Of a stretch of 42,360 nucleotides of DNA, positions 550 to 37,501 are shown in pieces. The stretch is from positions 1 to 42,360 of IMG/VR virus record IMGVR_UViG_3300034407_003109; one strand, given 5' to 3'. The position numbers and the translations under genes were made by a program. The notes under the pieces are model-generated. The model searched no databases. It was not told the DNA's origin and saw only the letters and a list, made by a program, of their open reading frames with translations. Each line of letters opens with the position of its first letter. The first letter of the stretch is position 1. Source of the DNA: a virus.

Positions 550-1317
550 TTATACCTCAATCTCTATTAAACGTTTTGACTTTGGTGGAAACTTTGCCTT
601 TATCTTAGCTAAGTGTGATAAAATATTCTCTAGCATATCATCCTTTCTCTTTAACGAAAGAGCGTTAACAGCTTTTATTCTAATCACTACAAATCCGCGA
701 CTCAATAGTACCCCTTCTTTTTTTGAATCAAATTCGATTTGTTTGTTCAAATTCTCCACACCCCAAATTGGGTAAAAATGAGAAGGACCATCGACCTCTA
801 TTATAACTTTAAGTTCAGGTATGTAAAGGTCAATTTCCATTTTTTGAGTAGGAATTAAATTTTTATTGTGGAAATCAACTCTGTAACCCTCTGACTCTAA
901 TGTGTCTAAAATAACCCGTTCTAATTTAGATCCTTCCTTAGCAGCCTTACGTATAGCCTCAAAGGCTAACTGATTCATCTTGTGACGCTGCTCATCGCTC
1001 ATCGACTCCCAATTTTCCTTAGCGATTTGTGTTCTTCTTTTCTTTTCTTTCTCGCTCATTTTATCCCAAAAATCCATCATACCTCCGCTAATCTTCATAC
1101 GATCAGATTTAGATCTGACCTTGCCAGCAGTAGGGTGTTTAGCGGACCCGGTTTTTAAAGCATTCTTTTGTGCCTCACTACTGTCTCTTAATTGCTTTCC
1201 CTGTTTTTGTAACAACCGCCGAATTTTATTTGGATATGTATCTAGTTGTTTAGCTATGCTTCCAGGACTCATACCCTTTTCATACATCTCAATCATCTTG
1301 GATTCTAATTCATTCAT
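550..1317 (-). CDS. HTH plus Vsr-like endonuclease, candidate homing endonuclease
   Basis: A 255-residue protein. Residues 5-40 look like a helix-turn-helix (MSPGSIAKQL then KIRRLLQKQG). Residues 55-120 are basic and carry a NUMOD3-like stretch (GKVRSKSDRMKIS) typical of DNA-binding arms of homing enzymes. The C-terminal half (130-225) resembles the Vsr/DUF559 nuclease fold: E161-x-D163, then a strand ending E174-V-D176-G with H180, and a late strand FVVIRIK. This layout fits the Vsr-like or EDxHD homing endonuclease group, although a free-standing repair nuclease is possible. ATG 1317 is preceded by AGAAGGAA. It overlaps the upstream hypothetical gene by 8 bases and sits at the low-coordinate edge of the glycan block. 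Confidence 0.68.
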   Translation of the reverse strand: MNELESKMIEMYEKGMSPGSIAKQLDTYPNKIRRLLQKQGKQLRDSSEAQKNALKTGSAKHPTAGKVRSKSDRMKISGGMMDFWDKMSEKEKKRRTQIAKENWESMSDEQRHKMNQLAFEAIRKAAKEGSKLERVILDTLESEGYRVDFHNKNLIPTQKMEIDLYIPELKVIIEVDGPSHFYPIWGVENLNKQIEFDSKKEGVLLSRGFVVIRIKAVNALSLKRKDDMLENILSHLAKIKAKFPPKSKRLIEIEV

Positions 1318-1765
1318 CTTTTATTCCTTCTAAAATACTTTTTATACTGAAGTCTTCAAATTGAATGACTGGGTCTTGACCAGTAATTCGCTTGAACTCT
1401 TTTGTGTCTGTATCGTTCATAGTAACAACCTTTACTTTTTCAGAAACCATTAGTAATTTAAAGAAATCATTGTTTGCATCTGCTCTGTATACATGGAAAA
1501 GATCAAATTTGTTAACGATTCCCATAGCTAATAAGGAGCCGTCTAAAGAAGTTGACAATAGATTCCCAGTAAACGACCAAATCTCTGAGGCATTCATCAT
1601 ACTAAACTTAGGTGTCACTGGATTAAAAGCTAAATCATTAAAAAACACAGTAGCATCTCGGACATCGCCATTTTGTACTGCTGTATTTAACGAATTGAAA
1701 ATATTCATATTGATATCTTCTTCGCTAACGATTGGTATATAAAATCCGATATTTCTACTGTTCAT
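1310..1765 (-). CDS. Hypothetical protein
   Basis: A 151-residue protein that I do not recognise. It has no membrane segment, signal peptide or cysteine cluster. It appears mixed alpha/beta with a hydrophobic central strand (FFKLLMVSEKVKVVTM). The start ATG 1765 follows a GAGG element. It overlaps the end of the fcl-like gene upstream by 11 bases and the nuclease start downstream by 8, so it is expressed from the same transcript. It is the last gene of the glycan block and could belong to either the block or the nuclease side. Confidence 0.55.
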   Translation of the reverse strand: MNSRNIGFYIPIVSEEDINMNIFNSLNTAVQNGDVRDATVFFNDLAFNPVTPKFSMMNASEIWSFTGNLLSTSLDGSLLAMGIVNKFDLFHVYRADANNDFFKLLMVSEKVKVVTMNDTDTKEFKRITGQDPVIQFEDFSIKSILEGIKDE

Positions 1766-2717
1766 TACATTTTACCTCGCTATTACAACACTCAGTGTTG
1801 ATATTGTAGTTTTTTACGAACCAATTAATTGTTTTTTTTAATCCGCTATCTAATCCGATATTAGATTCAAAATTTAGTCTATCTTTTGCTCTTGTTGTGT
1901 CTAAACATCTTCTAGGTTGACCATTTGGTTTAAAGTCATCCCAAACAATGTCACCTTTGAATTCTATTATGTCGCATATTTTTGTAACAAGGTCACGAAT
2001 AGTGATTTCTGAACCAGTACCAATATTGATTGGCTCAGGACCAGGATCGTTTTCGATAGCTTGCACCACCGCTTCCGCAAGATCTTCAACATATAGAAAC
2101 TCACGAGAAGCTGATCCATCACCCCACACCACCAGTTCTGTGTTATATTTCTTAGCACGAAGTACTTTAAGGATGAGTGCTGGAATAACATGACTAGTGG
2201 AAGTATTGAAGTGGTCATGTGGCCCATACATATTGACTGGAATTAAGTTGACAGCATTTAATCCAAACTGTTCATGGTATGTTTCGACCATTTTCATTAT
2301 AGTCTTTTTGGCAATTCCATATGGAGCATTGGTCTCTTCAGGATACCCCGACCATAAATCCTCTTCTTTAAATGGAACAGGGGTAAACTTTGGATAAGCA
2401 CAAACCGTGCCGAGCATAACCAATTTACAACGGTATTCTAATGCTTGCTCTACTGCATTTAGACCCATAGCTAGATTATTCTTAATCATTAAACCTGGGT
2501 TTTCCGCATTAAAGCCAATACCACCAACAAAGCCTGCAGCATGAACTAAAACATTTGGTCTATGCTTATACATAACCTTAGAAAATTCATAGACAGAAGT
2601 TAAATTGCCATCCTTTTGTCCAACAGCAGTGACATTGTTTTCTCCATACGTTCTAGATAAGGATTCTGTTAAGTTCTTACCAACAAAACCTGTACCACCA
2701 GCAATTAAAATTCTCAA
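1755..2717 (-). CDS. fcl: GDP-L-fucose synthase-like epimerase/reductase
   Basis: An extended short-chain dehydrogenase of 320 residues, close to the usual length for GDP-4-keto-6-deoxymannose 3,5-epimerase-4-reductase. It shows the NAD(P) motif GGTGFVG at 7-13, the family pattern HAAGFVGGI, the Y133-x3-K137 pair, and the epimerase residues C106 (in LGTVCAYP) and H176 (in STSHVIPAL), matching Cys109 and His179 of the E. coli enzyme. WGDGSASREFLYVEDLA and NGQPRR are also family signatures. The expected product is GDP-L-fucose, or GDP-colitose if it acts after the ColD-like enzyme at 14646-15785. The only possible start is TTG 2717, because a stop lies two codons upstream; AAGGA stands 8 bases before it. 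No GDP-mannose dehydratase is seen in the window. Confidence 0.85.
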   Translation of the reverse strand: MRILIAGGTGFVGKNLTESLSRTYGENNVTAVGQKDGNLTSVYEFSKVMYKHRPNVLVHAAGFVGGIGFNAENPGLMIKNNLAMGLNAVEQALEYRCKLVMLGTVCAYPKFTPVPFKEEDLWSGYPEETNAPYGIAKKTIMKMVETYHEQFGLNAVNLIPVNMYGPHDHFNTSTSHVIPALILKVLRAKKYNTELVVWGDGSASREFLYVEDLAEAVVQAIENDPGPEPINIGTGSEITIRDLVTKICDIIEFKGDIVWDDFKPNGQPRRCLDTTRAKDRLNFESNIGLDSGLKKTINWFVKNYNINTECCNSEVKCNEQ

Positions 2718-3268
2718 TTTTCATATCCTTTATTGTCAAAATCTAAAGAATCATCTTCAAAATCATCTGAATAAAAAGCGGGAGCAGCTCCTCCAACAAT
2801 AGTAAACGGTACATTTGATAATCTAGCACTTTGAGTTGACACAAAATGTATATCGTTTTCTTCAGAAGGACATGTCTCGACAACGGAGATAACTTCAGAT
2901 GTATTACTGTATACTATCACATGAGGGGTCTTATTGTCAAGACAAGTAAAGTGCTCATATTTATTTTGATGGATCGTTGACAATGCACCACCTTCGCTTT
3001 CTTCAATAATAACAGTATCAGCAGATTGAGCTTTTACTAGATCGCTAATCTTATCAATATCTTCTTTTGTTGCATTGTTGACACAAACAATGACATCAAC
3101 AGCCCCATGCATTATTGCATTTGTTACAGATGTTTGAAAATAGGCCGATGGACAATTATTAATTATCTGTTCAGTCTCTTCATCGTGCCCAAACATCATT
3201 ACATTTATAAAAGATTTGCCGCCGTATGCTATCAGCGTTTCTTCAACAACATCATGAAGCTTGCTCAT
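2714..3268 (-). CDS. Hypothetical protein with acidic tail
   Basis: A 184-residue protein, not recognised. It appears alpha/beta with repeated hydrophobic strands (VDVIVCVNN, ADTVIIEES, PHVIVYSN), as in a Rossmann-like or nucleotide-binding fold, but no glycine-rich loop or catalytic motif is visible. The last 25 residues are acidic (DDFEDDSLDFDN). It overlaps the start of the fcl-like gene by a TTGA and the end of the cupin gene by an ATGA. Its place suggests a role in the glycan pathway or in its control; nothing in the sequence says which. Confidence 0.5.
   Translation of the reverse strand: MSKLHDVVEETLIAYGGKSFINVMMFGHDEETEQIINNCPSAYFQTSVTNAIMHGAVDVIVCVNNATKEDIDKISDLVKAQSADTVIIEESEGGALSTIHQNKYEHFTCLDNKTPHVIVYSNTSEVISVVETCPSEENDIHFVSTQSARLSNVPFTIVGGAAPAFYSDDFEDDSLDFDNKGYEN
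2715..2730 (-). promoter_or_regulatory. TTG start with Shine-Dalgarno and TTGA overlap
   Basis: On the minus strand AAGGA (2726-2730) is followed after 8 bases by TTG at 2717-2715, which shares bases with the TGA stop of the upstream gene (2716-2714). An in-frame TGA at 2723-2721 excludes any earlier start, and the Rossmann fold must begin here. The fcl-like gene is therefore very likely read from TTG by coupled termination and reinitiation. Confidence 0.8.
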
Positions 3269-3675
3269 CCTTCGTTCTCCCTCAATGTAAAAGTAGTATC
3301 TAATAATCGCAAAAACGAATCAAAATCTTCTATATAATCTTTCTTATCGTATGGAGTAGAACATATAGACATAAGCATGTCATCTCCTGTTAAATACACC
3401 TGTGAATCCCAAACTAACTTATCTACAAATACAGACTGATTTGGGTGTAACATTATTGATTCTAATCTTGTGCCATCGTGTAGTTTTACAAGTATTCTAC
3501 CTTTGACACATATCAAAACTTGTTGTGTTTCAAAATGAGCATGTCTGCCACGCTCTTCGCCTTTTGGAATGTCACAGACATAAAAAAATCTCTTGGGAAC
3601 AAAGGGTAATTTATCAAATTCAATAGGAACCAACATACCTTCTGGGTCTTCAAACGCTTTCCAATTTGTTAACAT
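3265..3675 (-). CDS. FdtA/WxcM-like sugar 3,4-ketoisomerase (cupin)
   Basis: A 136-residue RmlC-like cupin. KRFFYVCDIPKGEERGRHAH places H45 and H47 at the position of the catalytic histidine pair of dTDP-4-keto-6-deoxyglucose 3,4-ketoisomerases (FdtA, QdtA, TylM3-like, WxcM C-terminal domain). CVKGRILVKLHDG is the next cupin strand pair. The family makes a 3-keto sugar that a DegT aminotransferase then aminates, and such an aminotransferase lies immediately upstream (3650-4573), a pairing seen in Fdt and Qdt loci. ATG 3675 is preferred over a TTG two codons earlier because AAAGG precedes it. The exact substrate is inferred. Confidence 0.8.
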   Translation of the reverse strand: MLTNWKAFEDPEGMLVPIEFDKLPFVPKRFFYVCDIPKGEERGRHAHFETQQVLICVKGRILVKLHDGTRLESIMLHPNQSVFVDKLVWDSQVYLTGDDMLMSICSTPYDKKDYIEDFDSFLRLLDTTFTLRENEG

Positions 3676-4573
3676 ATTCAATTACCTTTCTAATATCTTG
3701 CATAGATAACTTTTCATGAAAAGGAATGCTTACGGTTGTTTTAGACTCTTTGTCGGAATTAGTCAAGTCATTAAAATCGCAATGGCTACGTACCGTGTCA
3801 GTAGCAAAATGTGACATATGATGACAAGCCTCATAGTGTATGCCACATATAATACCATGCTTTTTCATTTCGTCAACAAAATTCTTGTTGTTTCTTACGT
3901 TTATGCGGTATAAATGTCTGCTGGTATTCTCATAGCCCAACTCCTTATTATAAGTCTCACTGATGTAATCAAGGGCTTCATTTTTCTCATCCAGTTTATT
4001 TAAATTCTGATCAGCAAGATACATTTGTATAGAACTAGAATGACATTTAAACCCAGGCATGATGTGATTTCCATCTGTATCACGTCCATTCATAGTCATC
4101 GACCTAAACCAATCTATGGTTTCTTTAGAGTCTGATACAACCATGCCACCATCACAACTACCGACAGGTTTTGTTGGATAAAAACTATATATCACAATAT
4201 AATCTTCCATGTCGGAGCATTGATTTCTTGTGACTTCTTGTGCAGAATCTATAACATTAGTATGGAAGGGATAGGAGTGCCCAACCCACGAAATATCATC
4301 CGTAAAATTTATCGCCGTATTAGTGTTAACTAAAATATTAGGAACAACTGGAGGCATTATGCTAGGAATTGAAACAACATTTGGTTTATTATATTCTAGA
4401 CGCAGCAGTGATAGCATCAATAGGCTGGATGAACTATTTGCAGAACATGCATATTTTCCACCCACATATTCAGCAAACCTTGCTTCAAATTCATTTACGA
4501 TACTATCATGTAATAAATTTGAAAACCTAGATGTGTCTATCTTGTAGTGATTTATATTGACTAGATTAATCAT
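3650..4573 (-). CDS. DegT/DnrJ/EryC1-family sugar aminotransferase
   Basis: A 307-residue PLP-dependent aminotransferase, shorter than the usual 360-400 of the family. The PLP lysine is K135 in FYPTKPVGSCDGG, and the cofactor-binding aspartate is D109 in VIDSAQE. SANSSSSLLMLSLL matches the phosphate-binding loop region. It is paired with a FdtA-like ketoisomerase just downstream, so a 3-amino-3,6-dideoxyhexose is a reasonable product (FdtB/QdtB role). The N-terminal 20 residues are atypical and part of the C-terminal small domain is reduced. It overlaps the upstream glycosyltransferase stop by ATGA. Confidence 0.82.
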   Translation of the reverse strand: MINLVNINHYKIDTSRFSNLLHDSIVNEFEARFAEYVGGKYACSANSSSSLLMLSLLRLEYNKPNVVSIPSIMPPVVPNILVNTNTAINFTDDISWVGHSYPFHTNVIDSAQEVTRNQCSDMEDYIVIYSFYPTKPVGSCDGGMVVSDSKETIDWFRSMTMNGRDTDGNHIMPGFKCHSSSIQMYLADQNLNKLDEKNEALDYISETYNKELGYENTSRHLYRINVRNNKNFVDEMKKHGIICGIHYEACHHMSHFATDTVRSHCDFNDLTNSDKESKTTVSIPFHEKLSMQDIRKVIEYVNKLESV

Positions 4574-27681: not shown

Positions 27682-27993
27682 TCAATCATGATCCAAACAT
27701 GGCAAATCAAATTCATTGATTCTGAATATAATCAATTCTTCGTCATCTTTTACATTCTTGGCCGTAGCATTGACGGTAATCTGTGTACCTTCTTCTGCTA
27801 ATGAAGCAATGGTTTCTGCACCAGTATGCCAAGCTTCACAATAAATATACACAGGTGTTTTACTTTTTTCTCCACCGTGCTTGGTTTTACGATAATTATA
27901 AACTACTAATTTAAGATCAAGGTAACTGACTCCATCCACCTTGTCTAGAATTGGTTCTTCAGCTAAATAGCCGGTAAATATACAATTGTTCAT
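27682..27993 (-). CDS. ssb: Single-stranded DNA-binding protein
   Basis: A 103-residue OB-fold protein of the bacterial SSB type. It starts NNCIFTGYLAEEPILD, with strands SYLDLKLVVYN, VYIYCEAWH and EGTQITVNATAKN. It lacks the flexible acidic tail ending in DDIPF of cellular SSB, though the C-terminus ends acidic (CLDHD). It would coat single strands at the phage fork. It lies 9 bases after the polymerase C-half gene. Confidence 0.82.
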   Translation of the reverse strand: MNNCIFTGYLAEEPILDKVDGVSYLDLKLVVYNYRKTKHGGEKSKTPVYIYCEAWHTGAETIASLAEEGTQITVNATAKNVKDDEELIIFRINEFDLPCLDHD

Positions 27994-28002
27994 TTTTCTC
28001 CC

Positions 28003-29562
28003 TTAAATTTCATGTATTTTTTCAATAATAAAAGTATTGTCTTTTTCTACGTTGCCATACAACAAGAGGTTGTTACCTTCGAATAAAATAAAATGATATT
28101 TCTCTCTTGTCTCTGGAAATATAATAACATTATCAAGCGATGCCGTACCGTCCTCAATGGTAAGAAAAGACATTAGCTTACCCTTGTTTTTCCCTTCCTT
28201 CTTAATTTTGTAATCATTGATGCGGTTTATATTGGCAGCAACAATAATATCCTTACCCTTTTTTCCATCTACAATATTTTTACAAGTGGTATTTGAAGAC
28301 GAGATGTCCGAAGCCTCAATCTTTGACAATGAAATTGGACACCCAAGAAACCTAGTTTCCTGCTCTACAATCCATACAGGATCATCCGAGAGATCATAGG
28401 GCGGATCGTTTAATACCTGTATCTCACTTTCAACAGCTTGTTGTCTACTATAGCTATGTGTTCCCCCACCAGTCTTCTTTGTTGGTGCTAAACTTTTAAA
28501 TGATGCAGCCAAGCTTGACCATCGTTTTTCAGGATAATTCTTTTCAACCCATTTTGTTTCACCCTTGGTCAACTCTCTGAAGCTAGCATACTCATGCAAC
28601 GCCTTAGTTCTAGAAACGCCAGTCTTCTTCGTGGAAAAGAAACCTATTGAACACAAAGATTTAAATGCTGTTTTATTAATCTTATCGGACAGATGAATCA
28701 ATATATCCATCCAGCTAAAGTTCTTCGCCGGTTTTTGTAACTTTTCTTCAACATCTCTAATGGCAGCGATGACTTTATCGCCAGTAACACCCGTCAAGGA
28801 CTTGATATCCTTAACGCCAAAGTAAATATCCCCATTGTGAATATTGAATTTACTATCAAAGTTTGTCAGGTCAGGTAATTTGATATTGATATCAAAAATC
28901 CTGGCTTCTGAAACTAATTCATATATTTCTTCGTGGGGATCTTGTTTCTCTGACGCATAAAAAAATGACGCCAGAAAGAATTCTAAAGTATGATTTGCTT
29001 TATACCATGCACTCTGATATGCATTAATTGCATACGAAATTCCATGCGACTTATTAAAAAGATACCTAGCAGATTTTTCAATCCAGCTAAATATCTCATC
29101 AGCAGAATCTTTATCTACTGACCCTACTTTTTCACAACCCGCAATAAATTTTAGGCGGATCTTCTTCATCAAGTCAGACTTTTTCTTACCAATAGCTTTT
29201 CTAAGATCATCTGCTTCCTGTAGGCTAAATCCAGCCAGTTCAGTAGATATAATCATAGCCTGTTCTTGATAGATCAAGATACCCTGTGTATCACTTAGTA
29301 TCTTTTCTAGAGCTTCATGAATATATGTTACATCTTCTCTCTTGTGTTTTCTGTCAACAAAGTGCATAGCCAAACTCGTACCATCCAACATAGCATTTAA
29401 CACACCAGGACGAATGATACTAATCAATGCAGACAGTTCTTCAATACTATGAGGCTCTAGCTTTTTAGACCACGAGCGACCTAACTGACTTTCCAATTGG
29501 AAGATACCCTTGGTAAGTCCGTCTTTGAAGAGTTTCCAAGACTTATCGTCATTGTAATTCAA
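28003..29562 (-). CDS. dnaE: DNA polymerase III alpha, C-terminal half (fingers to OB fold)
   Basis: A 519-residue protein equivalent to E. coli DnaE from just after the third palm aspartate onwards. It contains GIFQLES, SIIRPGVLNAMLDG, DTQGILIYQEQAM, DDLRKAIGKKK and LFNKSHGISYAINAYQ of the fingers, then a helix-hairpin region, and ends in an OB fold (IIVAANINRI, FLTIEDGTASLDNVI). No QxxLF-like clamp motif was seen, and nothing follows the OB fold where cellular DnaE has its tau-binding domain. It starts at TTG 29562, overlapping the DnaQ stop (TTGA), with GGGGA upstream. It must pair with the N-half at 30226-31776. Confidence 0.88.
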   Translation of the reverse strand: MNYNDDKSWKLFKDGLTKGIFQLESQLGRSWSKKLEPHSIEELSALISIIRPGVLNAMLDGTSLAMHFVDRKHKREDVTYIHEALEKILSDTQGILIYQEQAMIISTELAGFSLQEADDLRKAIGKKKSDLMKKIRLKFIAGCEKVGSVDKDSADEIFSWIEKSARYLFNKSHGISYAINAYQSAWYKANHTLEFFLASFFYASEKQDPHEEIYELVSEARIFDINIKLPDLTNFDSKFNIHNGDIYFGVKDIKSLTGVTGDKVIAAIRDVEEKLQKPAKNFSWMDILIHLSDKINKTAFKSLCSIGFFSTKKTGVSRTKALHEYASFRELTKGETKWVEKNYPEKRWSSLAASFKSLAPTKKTGGGTHSYSRQQAVESEIQVLNDPPYDLSDDPVWIVEQETRFLGCPISLSKIEASDISSSNTTCKNIVDGKKGKDIIVAANINRINDYKIKKEGKNKGKLMSFLTIEDGTASLDNVIIFPETREKYHFILFEGNNLLLYGNVEKDNTFIIEKIHEI

Positions 29563-30233
29563 ATGTACAATTCCCCATTTGCAAAAGTTTTATCAATTTT
29601 CAAATTACGATAAACAGCACGATGAGTTTTCATAAACTTAATCATAATGTTAGCAGTATCCTTCACGTCCTGCAAGGCGTCATGGGCATTTTCTGAAGAT
29701 AATCCCATTCTTTCCCGAAGCGAGTCCATACTGATAGATTTTACATCTGGATCTCCTTCTGTCCACATCCATACATTATCCATTACATCAATCTTATAGA
29801 CCTTGGAGAACAATTGCTGCTCTCCCCTTTTTGCATCCCAAGGCCCGAATTCCTTACAGAGACGGTTAATGATCTTCATGTCATACCCGATGATATTAAA
29901 ACCGGCGGGAATAGGAGCAAAGAAAGGAGTTCCTTTCCAGTTATACTTATCAACAAAAGCTGTAAACTTTTTCCAAACGGTTTTCAATTGAGGTGCCTTA
30001 GCAATCTGTTCTCTTGTTTTACCTGTAACCTTCAATGCACCTTCTTCAATTGGTCCGAGGCCAGCAGCAATGGCTTTTTCGTCATCAACTTCTGCACGGA
30101 TCTCACTATTAAATGTACCCTTTAATTTTAAGTTCCTTCCGTCTAATGCAATTGCAGCTATCTGTGTAGGTTGGCAAGTGTTCGCGTCACGACCGCCTGT
30201 TTCAAAGTCAAAGCAAATTATATCCCTATTCAT
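29559..30233 (-). CDS. dnaQ: DnaQ-like 3'-5' exonuclease (DEDDh)
   Basis: A 224-residue proofreading-type exonuclease. Catalytic residues are D9 and E11 in CFDFETGG, D118 in NIIGYDMK, and H184 with D189 in NAHDALQDV. VTGKTREQI is a family motif. It is larger than the E. coli epsilon catalytic core, with no clear clamp or alpha-binding tail. It lies between the two polymerase halves, overlapping the N-half stop by 8 bases and the C-half start by TTGA, so the three are likely made in similar amounts and act as one core. Confidence 0.88.
   Translation of the reverse strand: MNRDIICFDFETGGRDANTCQPTQIAAIALDGRNLKLKGTFNSEIRAEVDDEKAIAAGLGPIEEGALKVTGKTREQIAKAPQLKTVWKKFTAFVDKYNWKGTPFFAPIPAGFNIIGYDMKIINRLCKEFGPWDAKRGEQQLFSKVYKIDVMDNVWMWTEGDPDVKSISMDSLRERMGLSSENAHDALQDVKDTANIMIKFMKTHRAVYRNLKIDKTFANGELYI
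29560..29576 (-). promoter_or_regulatory. TTG start with TTGA overlap at the polymerase C-half
   Basis: GGGGA (29572-29576) is followed after 9 bases by TTG (29562-29560), which overlaps the exonuclease TGA stop. The frame is open about nine codons further upstream, but no ATG or GTG lies there and this TTG coincides with the coupling overlap. Confidence 0.65.
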
Positions 30234-31776
30234 TTATCAATTCCTCTACTTTCATAAATTTATCAAGTGTAGAAAGTCCTAAAACGTCAAATTTAACATG
30301 ACCAAGTGCTTCCAAGTCATCCATTTCTAGTGCGGCTATTTTTTCGCCACCACCTTTTGGATCAACCATGGGGCATACTTCTTCAAGTGGTTCTTTAGAT
30401 ATCACAACTCCAGCAGCATGTTTACCTTGGGTTTTAAATGTACCCTCTAAATCTATAGCTTGCTTGAAGTATTCTGCGTAATCGCCTCGCAATTCGCCTT
30501 CATCATCAATATAACAATAATCACGAAACTTCTCAGGCTCATTAATAAGAGACCATTTAATAATAGATCTCTCATCTTCGTGCATCTCTTGTAGTCCATC
30601 TGAAATGTCAGCCTCATTCCTTAACGGCTTAGTGATTTCATTCATAAGACCAAATCCACAAGCCTCATGAATCCTAAGAACTTCCTTTAAAGCAGATTTA
30701 CCCCTGAGCCTTCCAAAAGTTACCATCTGGCTAACGTTATTGTTCCCATATGTATCCTCAATATAACCAATGATCTCATCTCTTTTGTTGCTTGGTACAT
30801 CCATATCAATATCTGGTAGGGAAATATGATCACCAGTGTTTCTTCCGCTATTATAGAATCTTTCAAATAACAAATCGTACTGTATAGGATCAATCTTTGT
30901 AATTCCAAGCATATATGATATCAAACATCCTGCAGCACTACCTCTGCCGGGACCAGCAATCCATCCATTGTTGGTAACAAAATTAATAATGTCTTGTACA
31001 ATTAGAAAATAACCAAACAATTCTGCTTCATCAATTACATCAAACTCACGTAGAAACCTATGGTGATAACTATCTTTAGCCTCTTGGTCACCAACCTTAC
31101 CTTCTTTTACTAATATCTTTCTCCAACCGTCACGGCATAACTCTTTTAGGTATTCTTTTTCTGATTGACCATTAGGAGTTGGAAAAGTCGGAAGAACCGG
31201 CTTACTTAGAATATCATACTCCTCGCAATTATTATACACAGTTTCTAGAATTTCTGTGTTAAAACTTGCAGACTGTTCAGCATTTGACACAAAGTAATTA
31301 TCTTTTTCAAAGAATGCCTTGTTGTCAAAATCCTCCTTACTATTAAGTATTTTGTTCTGAATCTTAGGAAGAGTTGTCTTCATTCCAGAAGCAAGCATAA
31401 TCCTATGTAACTTAGCGTCTTTTATATCAACATAGTACATTGGATCAATTGAAGATTCACTGACGCGAATCAAGTCAGTCTCATCATGGATATTGTTGTT
31501 TGGATCTGAAACTATTTTAATAAGATCAAACCATCCTTTTTTATTCTTTGCGAACAATGCAAAACCATCAAAAGAACAACCGATTATAGGTTTGACACCA
31601 GCACTCTTACACTCCTGAAAGAATGAAACAGCACCAGACAAAGTCTTATAATCTGCTATACCACAAGCTTTATAGTTATTATCAACACACTTTTTAACCA
31701 GTTCCTTTGGTTTTGAATAACCTTTAAGCAATGAATAATGAGTATAGTTCCACAAAGGATACCAACCGCATTTCAT
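30226..31776 (-). CDS. dnaE: DNA polymerase III alpha, N-terminal half (PHP to palm)
   Basis: A 516-residue protein that stops cleanly with TAG after the palm. Catalytic aspartates are D322 and D324 in LPDIDMDV and D497 in HVKFDVLGL. GPGRGSAAGCLISYML and HAAGVVISKEPLEEV are family blocks. The PHP domain is about 85 residues shorter than in E. coli and its metal ligands are lost: the HxHxxYS start reads WNYTHYS, and the IxDH motif reads IADYK. Proofreading would then rest on the separate exonuclease. No intein N-fragment follows the last residues. ATG 31776 has AAAGGAA upstream. Confidence 0.9.
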   Translation of the reverse strand: MKCGWYPLWNYTHYSLLKGYSKPKELVKKCVDNNYKACGIADYKTLSGAVSFFQECKSAGVKPIIGCSFDGFALFAKNKKGWFDLIKIVSDPNNNIHDETDLIRVSESSIDPMYYVDIKDAKLHRIMLASGMKTTLPKIQNKILNSKEDFDNKAFFEKDNYFVSNAEQSASFNTEILETVYNNCEEYDILSKPVLPTFPTPNGQSEKEYLKELCRDGWRKILVKEGKVGDQEAKDSYHHRFLREFDVIDEAELFGYFLIVQDIINFVTNNGWIAGPGRGSAAGCLISYMLGITKIDPIQYDLLFERFYNSGRNTGDHISLPDIDMDVPSNKRDEIIGYIEDTYGNNNVSQMVTFGRLRGKSALKEVLRIHEACGFGLMNEITKPLRNEADISDGLQEMHEDERSIIKWSLINEPEKFRDYCYIDDEGELRGDYAEYFKQAIDLEGTFKTQGKHAAGVVISKEPLEEVCPMVDPKGGGEKIAALEMDDLEALGHVKFDVLGLSTLDKFMKVEELINE

Positions 31777-36625: not shown

Positions 36626-37092
36626 TTTCGTTTACCTTTCTCTAATAAACATTCGGCCTTCTTTTTTATATTGAACTCTCTACCTTCGAGAGATCTAATT
36701 CTCGACTCTGCTATATGTTTAAATTCTATCAATTTTTGTGCCACATGATTATCCTTTGTTATCATCGCTACTTTAATTTCTTTAGTTGTATAGAATTTTT
36801 CTACATCCATAAAATCTCTAGCTACGATCTTATTAATAAACTCTTCGCAAAATGATATTACATTCTGCTGCTTGGCTCTTTCTCCGATTAAGTAATCGGC
36901 ATAATTATACAACAGAAACGCATAATTAAAACAATCTTCTTGTGACAAGTCTCTTAATTCTTTACCTGAAAATAATTCAGCTTCTTTTAGTTCCTCATGA
37001 AAATTTAAGGTTCCTAAGTTTTTATTGCTGATATAATCATCAATCCTCTGAAGGAATTCCTTTAGTTTTTCCTCGATATTAGAATTGTTCAA
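36622..37092 (-). CDS. Helical protein, possible UvsY-like recombination mediator
   Basis: A 156-residue, mostly helical, charged protein. The segment from residue 103 (KEIKVAM through RIRSLEGREFNIKK) follows an order reminiscent of T4 UvsY: an acidic/basic helix followed by a serine- or glycine-arginine-phenylalanine turn near the C-terminus. It is near a RecA/UvsX gene, as UvsY often is. The match is by eye and weak. It starts at TTG 37092 with GGAGAG upstream; an in-frame stop seven codons upstream allows no ATG. Confidence 0.4.
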   Translation of the reverse strand: MNNSNIEEKLKEFLQRIDDYISNKNLGTLNFHEELKEAELFSGKELRDLSQEDCFNYAFLLYNYADYLIGERAKQQNVISFCEEFINKIVARDFMDVEKFYTTKEIKVAMITKDNHVAQKLIEFKHIAESRIRSLEGREFNIKKKAECLLEKGKRK

Positions 37093-37501
37093 TTTGTTCT
37101 CTCCAAGTTTCTATATCATCACTATATTTTAAAACGATTAGTGAGATTTCATTTAGCTCACACCAATCTTGCTTCAGGTTATCTCTTTTAATGGATTCTT
37201 TGAATCCCGCAATAGACTTATGAAAGAAAGCAGAATACTCATAGTGTTGCTTACCATGAACCTCAACAGCAACTTTAATATGTGGAATGAAAAAGTCAAG
37301 GAATAATGTGGATTTTAATGCTTTATTCCTGCTTCCAGGAAGCTTTACTTCTTCAAGAATCCAATGGCTACCATAGATGTCGTTCAACAATCCCCTAGCT
37401 GATAAATGAAATTTTGATCTCGGTCTTGGATCATTATTTTTTACAATATATTTATGTAGTTGTAACTTGTAGACCCTATCATTGAGACCTTTAACTTTCA
37501 T
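37079..37501 (-). CDS. Vsr-like endonuclease
   Basis: A 140-residue nuclease. LFLDFFIPHIKVAVEVHGKQHY holds D69, E80 and H82 with H86, the Vsr/DUF559 active-site plan, and SIKRDNLKQDWC (D107) and ISLIVLKY are the last helix and strand. It lies between the RecA/UvsX gene (ATGA overlap) and the UvsY-like candidate, which suggests a recombination or repair role, though a free-standing homing nuclease is possible. It has no extra DNA-binding domain. Confidence 0.65.
   Translation of the reverse strand: MKVKGLNDRVYKLQLHKYIVKNNDPRPRSKFHLSARGLLNDIYGSHWILEEVKLPGSRNKALKSTLFLDFFIPHIKVAVEVHGKQHYEYSAFFHKSIAGFKESIKRDNLKQDWCELNEISLIVLKYSDDIETWREQIEQF

What the first reader, a model, noticed from the sequence alone, without database searches (positions are those of the whole stretch)
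28003..31776. DNA polymerase III alpha split into two genes with its exonuclease between them
The N-half (30226-31776) ends after the third palm aspartate (D497) and the C-half (28003-29562) starts with the fingers, so the break is at the palm/fingers boundary. A DnaQ-like exonuclease sits exactly between them, overlapping both. Each half keeps its conserved motifs and no intein sequence flanks the break. It suggests a polymerase core rebuilt from three co-translated chains. The known cyanobacterial DnaE split lies elsewhere, at the FNKSH motif, which is whole here.
Basis: partly seen in the sequence, partly recalled or inferred. Interest (0 to 1): 0.88.

Follow-up and report, generated by a model that had tools for sequence, protein, structure and literature searches.

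The report
Phage replicative polymerase in two halves
A large group of uncultivated, mostly marine viruses of bacteria makes its DNA-copying enzyme as two separate proteins, with the gene for a proofreading enzyme lying between them, and the break is old and stable rather than a sequencing error.

Summary
N-half (30226-31776, 516 aa: degenerate PHP, palm, all three catalytic Asp) and C-half (28003-29562, 519 aa: fingers, HhH, OB) are one DnaE-type Pol III alpha, broken at E. coli residues ~575/590, an unconserved loop just inside the fingers. A DEDDh exonuclease (29559-30233) lies between them, overlapping both by 8 and 4 nt. Related IMG/VR contigs keep N-exo-C order in 181 of 181 cases; none has an unsplit gene. 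All three genes are under strong purifying selection (dN/dS 0.01-0.09). In 16 contigs of 95-176 kb this is the only DNA polymerase found, so it is most likely the replicase, assembled non-covalently. The window has no intein or intron, although some relatives carry extra (split) inteins inside the halves, making up to four polymerase pieces. Both junctions are hotspots for endonuclease and other inserted genes. Split phage polymerases are known (T4-like gp43A/B, minimal Pol III of jumbo phages); an isolate, Rossellomorea phage phiT1, is split in the same loop. So this is a new variant of a known kind. Reconstitution and exonuclease membership of the complex are inferred; structure prediction could not be run.

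The parts
30226..31776 (-). N-half of DnaE-type Pol III alpha (516 aa): degenerate PHP, palm, thumb, catalytic D322/D324/D497
   Evidence: Pfam PF07733, PF02811; PDB alignment to E. coli alpha up to ~573; Asp alignment; PHP metal ligands lost
29559..30233 (-). DEDDh DnaQ-like 3'-5' exonuclease (224 aa), D9, E11, D118, H184, D189 invariant in relatives
   Evidence: Pfam RNase_T; PHROG_192 'DNA polymerase exonuclease subunit' 3e-26; alignment A3; motif positions
28003..29562 (-). C-half of Pol III alpha (519 aa, TTG start): fingers, HhH, OB fold; FNKSH intact
   Evidence: Pfam PF17657; aligns to E. coli alpha from residue 592; alignment A2
30226..30233 (-). 8-nt overlap of N-half stop and exonuclease start, GAGG 9 nt before the ATG
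   Evidence: sequence
29559..29562 (-). 4-nt TTGA overlap of exonuclease stop and C-half TTG start, GGGG 9 nt before the TTG
   Evidence: sequence
27682..27993 (-). SSB-like protein directly downstream, next gene of the replication block (found downstream in 72 of 93 first-set contigs)
   Evidence: PF00436
31803..32822 (-). PD-(D/E)XK nuclease upstream in the same block
   Evidence: PF12705
33592..34626 (-). DnaG-like primase of the same replication block
   Evidence: PF13662, PF08275, PF01807
34787..36229 (-). DnaB-like replicative helicase of the same block
   Evidence: PF03796, PF00772

Best explanation
This is the replicase of a large uncultivated, mostly marine phage lineage. The catalytic alpha subunit was permanently split, once and long ago, in the loop joining palm to fingers. 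The two chains are made from one overlapping operon with a DnaQ-like exonuclease between them and re-associate without covalent joining into an active alpha. The exonuclease supplies proofreading because the PHP domain has lost its metal ligands. Shown: the split, its conservation, purifying selection, the absence of another DNA polymerase in the long contigs, the absence of splicing elements at the break. Inferred: non-covalent reassembly, polymerase activity, translational coupling, membership of the exonuclease in the complex, and homing-endonuclease activity as the probable cause of the original break.
For: N-exo-C order in 93/93 and 88/88 distinct contigs, exonuclease identity down to 35%. 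dN/dS 0.03-0.09 (N), 0.01-0.07 (exo), 0.03-0.09 (C). One palm and one finger gene set and no PolA or PolB in 16 contigs of 95-176 kb, with positive controls. All catalytic Asp and finger motifs kept. The PHP ligand motif HxHxH is replaced while the DEDDh residues are invariant. Place in a block with primase, DnaB, UvsX-like, PD-(D/E)XK nuclease and SSB genes. No Rfam intron. Precedent: split T4-like gp43A/B co-purify and are active, split Aeh1 NrdA is active (PMC2988022).
Against: No biochemical data, no structure model (server down), no isolate. No sliding clamp family and no canonical clamp motif detected, so processivity is unexplained. In some relatives other genes separate N from exo (up to 2.8 kb), so tight coupling is not essential. 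Contigs may be incomplete, so another polymerase could have been missed.
Confidence: 0.8

Rival explanations
1. The halves are joined after translation by a split intein, or their mRNAs by a trans-spliced intron, so the mature polymerase is one chain.
For: Some relatives do carry split inteins at other sites: GPGRG^S in the N-half and FNK^SH in the C-half (L085, TIGR01445 35 bits over a cut-off of 24.5).
Against: No intein sequence at the end of N or start of C in the window or in aligned relatives. The break is in an unconserved loop where inteins seldom insert. Overlapping ORFs leave no room for an intron, and Rfam finds none.
Confidence: 0.03
2. The exonuclease is only a neighbour: it acts in another process and does not bind the split polymerase; the polymerase itself is still a two-chain enzyme.
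For: Unrelated genes also sit at the junctions. PB1 phage encodes a similar but separate exonuclease next to an unsplit polymerase. The window exonuclease has only a ~20-aa tail after its catalytic domain.
Against: It is present in the order N-exo-C in all 181 contigs and is adjacent to C in most; PHROG_192 members are called polymerase exonuclease subunits; alpha has no other proofreading domain and its PHP lacks metal ligands.
Confidence: 0.2
3. The halves are remnants or have separate jobs (for example decoys that bind host Pol III), and the phage replicates with the host polymerase.
For: No clamp was found, so some dependence on host replication proteins is likely.
Against: Strong purifying selection on both halves, with all catalytic residues kept, and presence in every relative.
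Confidence: 0.07
4. Sequencing or assembly artefact, or a broken gene.
For: Single metagenomic contig; TTG start of the C-half.
Against: Same break in 181 contigs; 93% identical relatives L002, L003 with the same overlaps; dN/dS about 0.05.
Confidence: 0.01

Closest known systems
Rossellomorea phage phiT1 gp20/gp18 (PV767480)
   Same: Pol III alpha encoded as two genes broken in the same palm/fingers loop: gp20 ends ...QINQGVAV, gp18 starts MFDILDIPLDD; a 49-aa ORF lies between.
   Different: No exonuclease between; keeps the full linker; a single record without close relatives in the collections searched. In the trees it groups with unsplit polymerases, though one joint origin is not excluded (AU p 0.138-0.156).
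Minimal split Pol III alpha of group 2.2 jumbo phages (Iyer et al. 2021, PMC7824862)
   Same: Phage Pol III alpha made as two proteins.
   Different: Reduced to the catalytic core, coded by distant genes, beside a family B polymerase. PHROG families suggest a break between GPGRGS and DxD, inside the palm (my inference). Here the enzyme keeps full architecture, the genes are clustered with an exonuclease and no other polymerase was found.
Split gp43A/gp43B of Aeromonas T4-like phages 25 and 44RR (Petrov 2010, via PMC2988022)
   Same: A replicase split into two chains, with a homing endonuclease or spacer between; the halves of phage 25 co-purify and are active.
   Different: Family B polymerase, an unrelated fold, with its own exonuclease domain (recalled).
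Cyanobacterial split DnaE with trans-splicing intein
   Same: DnaE in two genes; some relatives here break at the same FNK^SH site with split-intein sequence (L085 C1/C2).
   Different: The palm/fingers break has no intein; no ligation expected.
Fractured genes with split inteins and free endonucleases (Dassa 2009, cited in PMC7090010; details recalled)
   Same: Relatives L019, L085 and L087 show an intein N-part, a stop, an ORF resembling a free endonuclease, then the C-part with the downstream half.
   Different: The window's own break carries none of these elements.
Pseudomonas phage PB1 polymerase and exonuclease
   Same: Pol III alpha with a small separate 3'-5' exonuclease gene next to it.
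   Different: Alpha is one chain of 1035 aa and the exonuclease lies upstream of it.

Membership tests
C-family DNA polymerase, DnaE type | Pol-beta-like palm with three catalytic Asp aligned to E. coli D401/D403/D555 | tested here: met
   Alignment; PF07733 and NCBIfam DnaE models
C-family DNA polymerase, DnaE type | PHP, palm/thumb, fingers, HhH, OB in DnaE order, with no exonuclease inserted in PHP (unlike PolC) | tested here: met
   Order holds across the two chains, though HHH_6 and OB are below Pfam cut-offs; PolC models match only marginally
C-family DNA polymerase, DnaE type | Single polypeptide | tested here: not met
   Two genes in 181 of 181 related contigs
C-family DNA polymerase, DnaE type | Template-directed DNA synthesis | not testable with these tools
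   Needs purified proteins
DnaQ/epsilon DEDDh proofreading exonuclease | DEDDh catalytic residues | tested here: met
   D9, E11, D118, H184, D189 invariant
DnaQ/epsilon DEDDh proofreading exonuclease | Binding to alpha | not testable with these tools
   No complex prediction available; only genetic linkage
Cyanobacterial-type split-intein DnaE | Break at FNK^SH flanked by intein halves | tested here: not met
   FNKSH uninterrupted in the window; no intein at the break
Intron-interrupted polymerase gene | Group I/II intron around the inner ORF | tested here: not met
   No Rfam intron; ORFs overlap
Minimal split Pol III of group 2.2 jumbo phages | Core only, distant genes, PolB present | tested here: not met
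   Full domain set, clustered genes, no PolB in 16 long relatives

The most novel reading that the evidence does not exclude
An ancient phage lineage uses an obligate three-chain replicase core (palm chain, fingers chain, exonuclease) as its only DNA polymerase, with the exonuclease physically bridging the two halves of alpha, and in some members further trans-splicing inteins divide alpha into up to four pieces that must be both ligated and docked to work.
Probability: 0.25. Interest if true: 0.8.

Novelty: new variant of a known kind. Interest (0 to 1): 0.6.

Why it matters
It would show that a bacterial-type replicase can work permanently as separate palm and fingers chains across a diverse viral lineage. 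It offers a natural split point for engineering Pol III alpha, and gives a clear case of junctions repeatedly invaded by homing endonucleases around an essential gene. The relatives with split inteins inside the same halves give an internal comparison of two ways to live with a broken gene: ligation at conserved motifs and plain docking in a loop.

Tried and rejected
Structure prediction of both halves (A1, A2) was submitted repeatedly and the jobs failed or the server did not answer, so no fold search was run. No cultured relative: the phage collection has only weak matches for the exonuclease and the polymerase halves stay under 60% identity. Bacteroides phage SJC03 was checked because of its exonuclease; it lies beside terminase and ligase, and no split polymerase was found among the ten neighbouring genes scanned. 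Host: two MAG contigs (SAR202, Flavobacteriales) may be mis-binned, so no host is claimed. Gp23, T4 clamp and beta clamp searches found nothing, but the first two had no positive control. Separate origin of the phiT1 split could not be proven (AU p 0.156 and 0.138). Locus L187 is unsplit but only ~30% identical and lies outside the clade.

Full report
Observation. The N-half carries a PHP fragment and the DNA_pol3_alpha domain, the C-half the finger domain with weak HhH and OB matches, and the middle ORF an RNase_T/DEDDh exonuclease. Against E. coli Pol III alpha the N-half ends near residue 575 and the C-half begins near 590; the three catalytic Asp are D322, D324 and D497. The break therefore lies in an unconserved loop shortly after the palm, with about 14 linker residues absent. 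The overlaps (8 nt and 4 nt) and G-rich Shine-Dalgarno-like sites before both inner starts are visible in the sequence and suggest translational coupling, which was not tested.

Conservation. The window is a 42,360-base IMG/VR virus record. Searches with each part brought in related viral contigs up to 238 kb. In the first set all 93 distinct contigs that contain the three parts have them in the order N-exo-C; in the second, more distant set, 88 of 88. Some of these are near-identical assemblies of the same virus population. Exonuclease identity falls to 35%, so the arrangement is old. No member has one intact gene; the only unsplit match, L187, is about 30% identical and falls outside the clade. 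The polymerase trees put the split lineage together with full support.

Function. Pairwise dN/dS is 0.03-0.09 for N, 0.01-0.07 for the exonuclease and 0.03-0.09 for C. Sixteen contigs of 95-176 kb each have one palm and one finger gene set and no family A or B polymerase (the N-half of one, G010, is itself broken into three matches). The genes sit in a block with DnaG-like primase, DnaB-like helicase, UvsX-like recombinase, PD-(D/E)XK nuclease and SSB. The PHP metal motif seen in phiT1 and others (HLHxH) is PLWNY here, so PHP proofreading is unlikely, whereas the exonuclease keeps all DEDDh residues. The simplest reading is a replicase made of docked chains; this step is inferred.

Junctions. 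In the first set 31 of 93 contigs have 200 nt or more between N and exo and 41 of 93 between exo and C; 34 are compact at both. Inserts include HNH and endonuclease VII-like genes, a NaeI-like nuclease, FkbM methyltransferases and a glycosyltransferase. More distant relatives carry a ~72-aa ORF, a uracil-DNA glycosylase (L161; similar sequences in L135 and L166) or an 816-aa RCC1-like protein between N and exo. In five distant loci inspected the C-half keeps the linker and a short N-terminal extension, with a CGC motif, so the window's clade probably lost the linker later. In a few close pairs the N-half is nearly identical while the C-half is not (L051/L080: 0.09 against 0.57 at four-fold sites), so the parts are exchanged separately.

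Inteins. Several relatives have insertions at conserved motifs inside the halves: GPGRG^S (L085, L101, L106), IRPG (L069, L087) and FNK^SH (L019, L085, L087, L101). In L085 the intein N-parts score over the NCBIfam cut-off and end at a stop; the downstream parts start in another ORF. Alpha is thus in four pieces there, five chains with the exonuclease. The same FNK^SH site is split in cyanobacteria. The palm/fingers break shows no intein in any aligned relative, so it is of another type.

Known cases. A T4-like family B polymerase split in two is active and a split NrdA is active (PMC2988022). A minimal Pol III alpha in two distant genes was reported for jumbo phages with PolB (PMC7824862). 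Rossellomorea phage phiT1 has alpha split in the same loop with a 49-aa ORF between; trees place it with unsplit polymerases, but a joint origin is not rejected (AU p 0.156 and 0.138). I found no paper on the lineage studied here in the open library; papers outside that library were not searchable.

Limits. No structure or complex model could be obtained, no isolate or host is known, and the long contigs may be incomplete.

Noticed in passing
L085 721-7826; also L019, L087, L100, L101, L105, L106: Relatives carry additional split or contiguous inteins inside the polymerase halves at GPGRG^S and FNK^SH; in L085 alpha is coded in four pieces, with a Vsr-like ORF (my reading; no Pfam match) between two of them.
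   Followed up: partly
L069 6673-9030 and L087 6635-8044: Further inteins at the IRPG motif of the fingers; the L069 one has an HNH domain.
   Followed up: partly
L118 (PV767480) 601-3883: Rossellomorea phage phiT1 alpha is split in the same palm/fingers loop, annotated as two 'DNA polymerase III subunit alpha' genes.
   Followed up: partly
L161 3340-3888; similar in L166 and L135: Uracil-DNA glycosylase gene between N-half and exonuclease in distant relatives.
   Followed up: no
L181 1788-4238 and L178 1781-4243: RCC1-repeat-like 816-820 aa protein inserted between the N-half and the exonuclease.
   Followed up: no
window 1755-27685: About 26 kb rich in sugar and cell-surface biosynthesis genes: epimerases, DegT aminotransferases, glycosyltransferases, a C-methyltransferase, a DAHP/KDO-8-P synthase-like and a DHDPS-like gene; unusual load for a phage.
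   Followed up: partly
L036 6672-7193: NaeI-type restriction endonuclease domain alone at the exonuclease/C junction, possibly a homing-type nuclease.
   Followed up: no
L107 (VFHP01000007): A 152 kb contig with this polymerase block is binned in a SAR202 MAG; may hint at a host or be mis-binned.
   Followed up: no
window 37079-37501: HNH/homing endonuclease-like ORF next to the UvsX-like gene.
   Followed up: no
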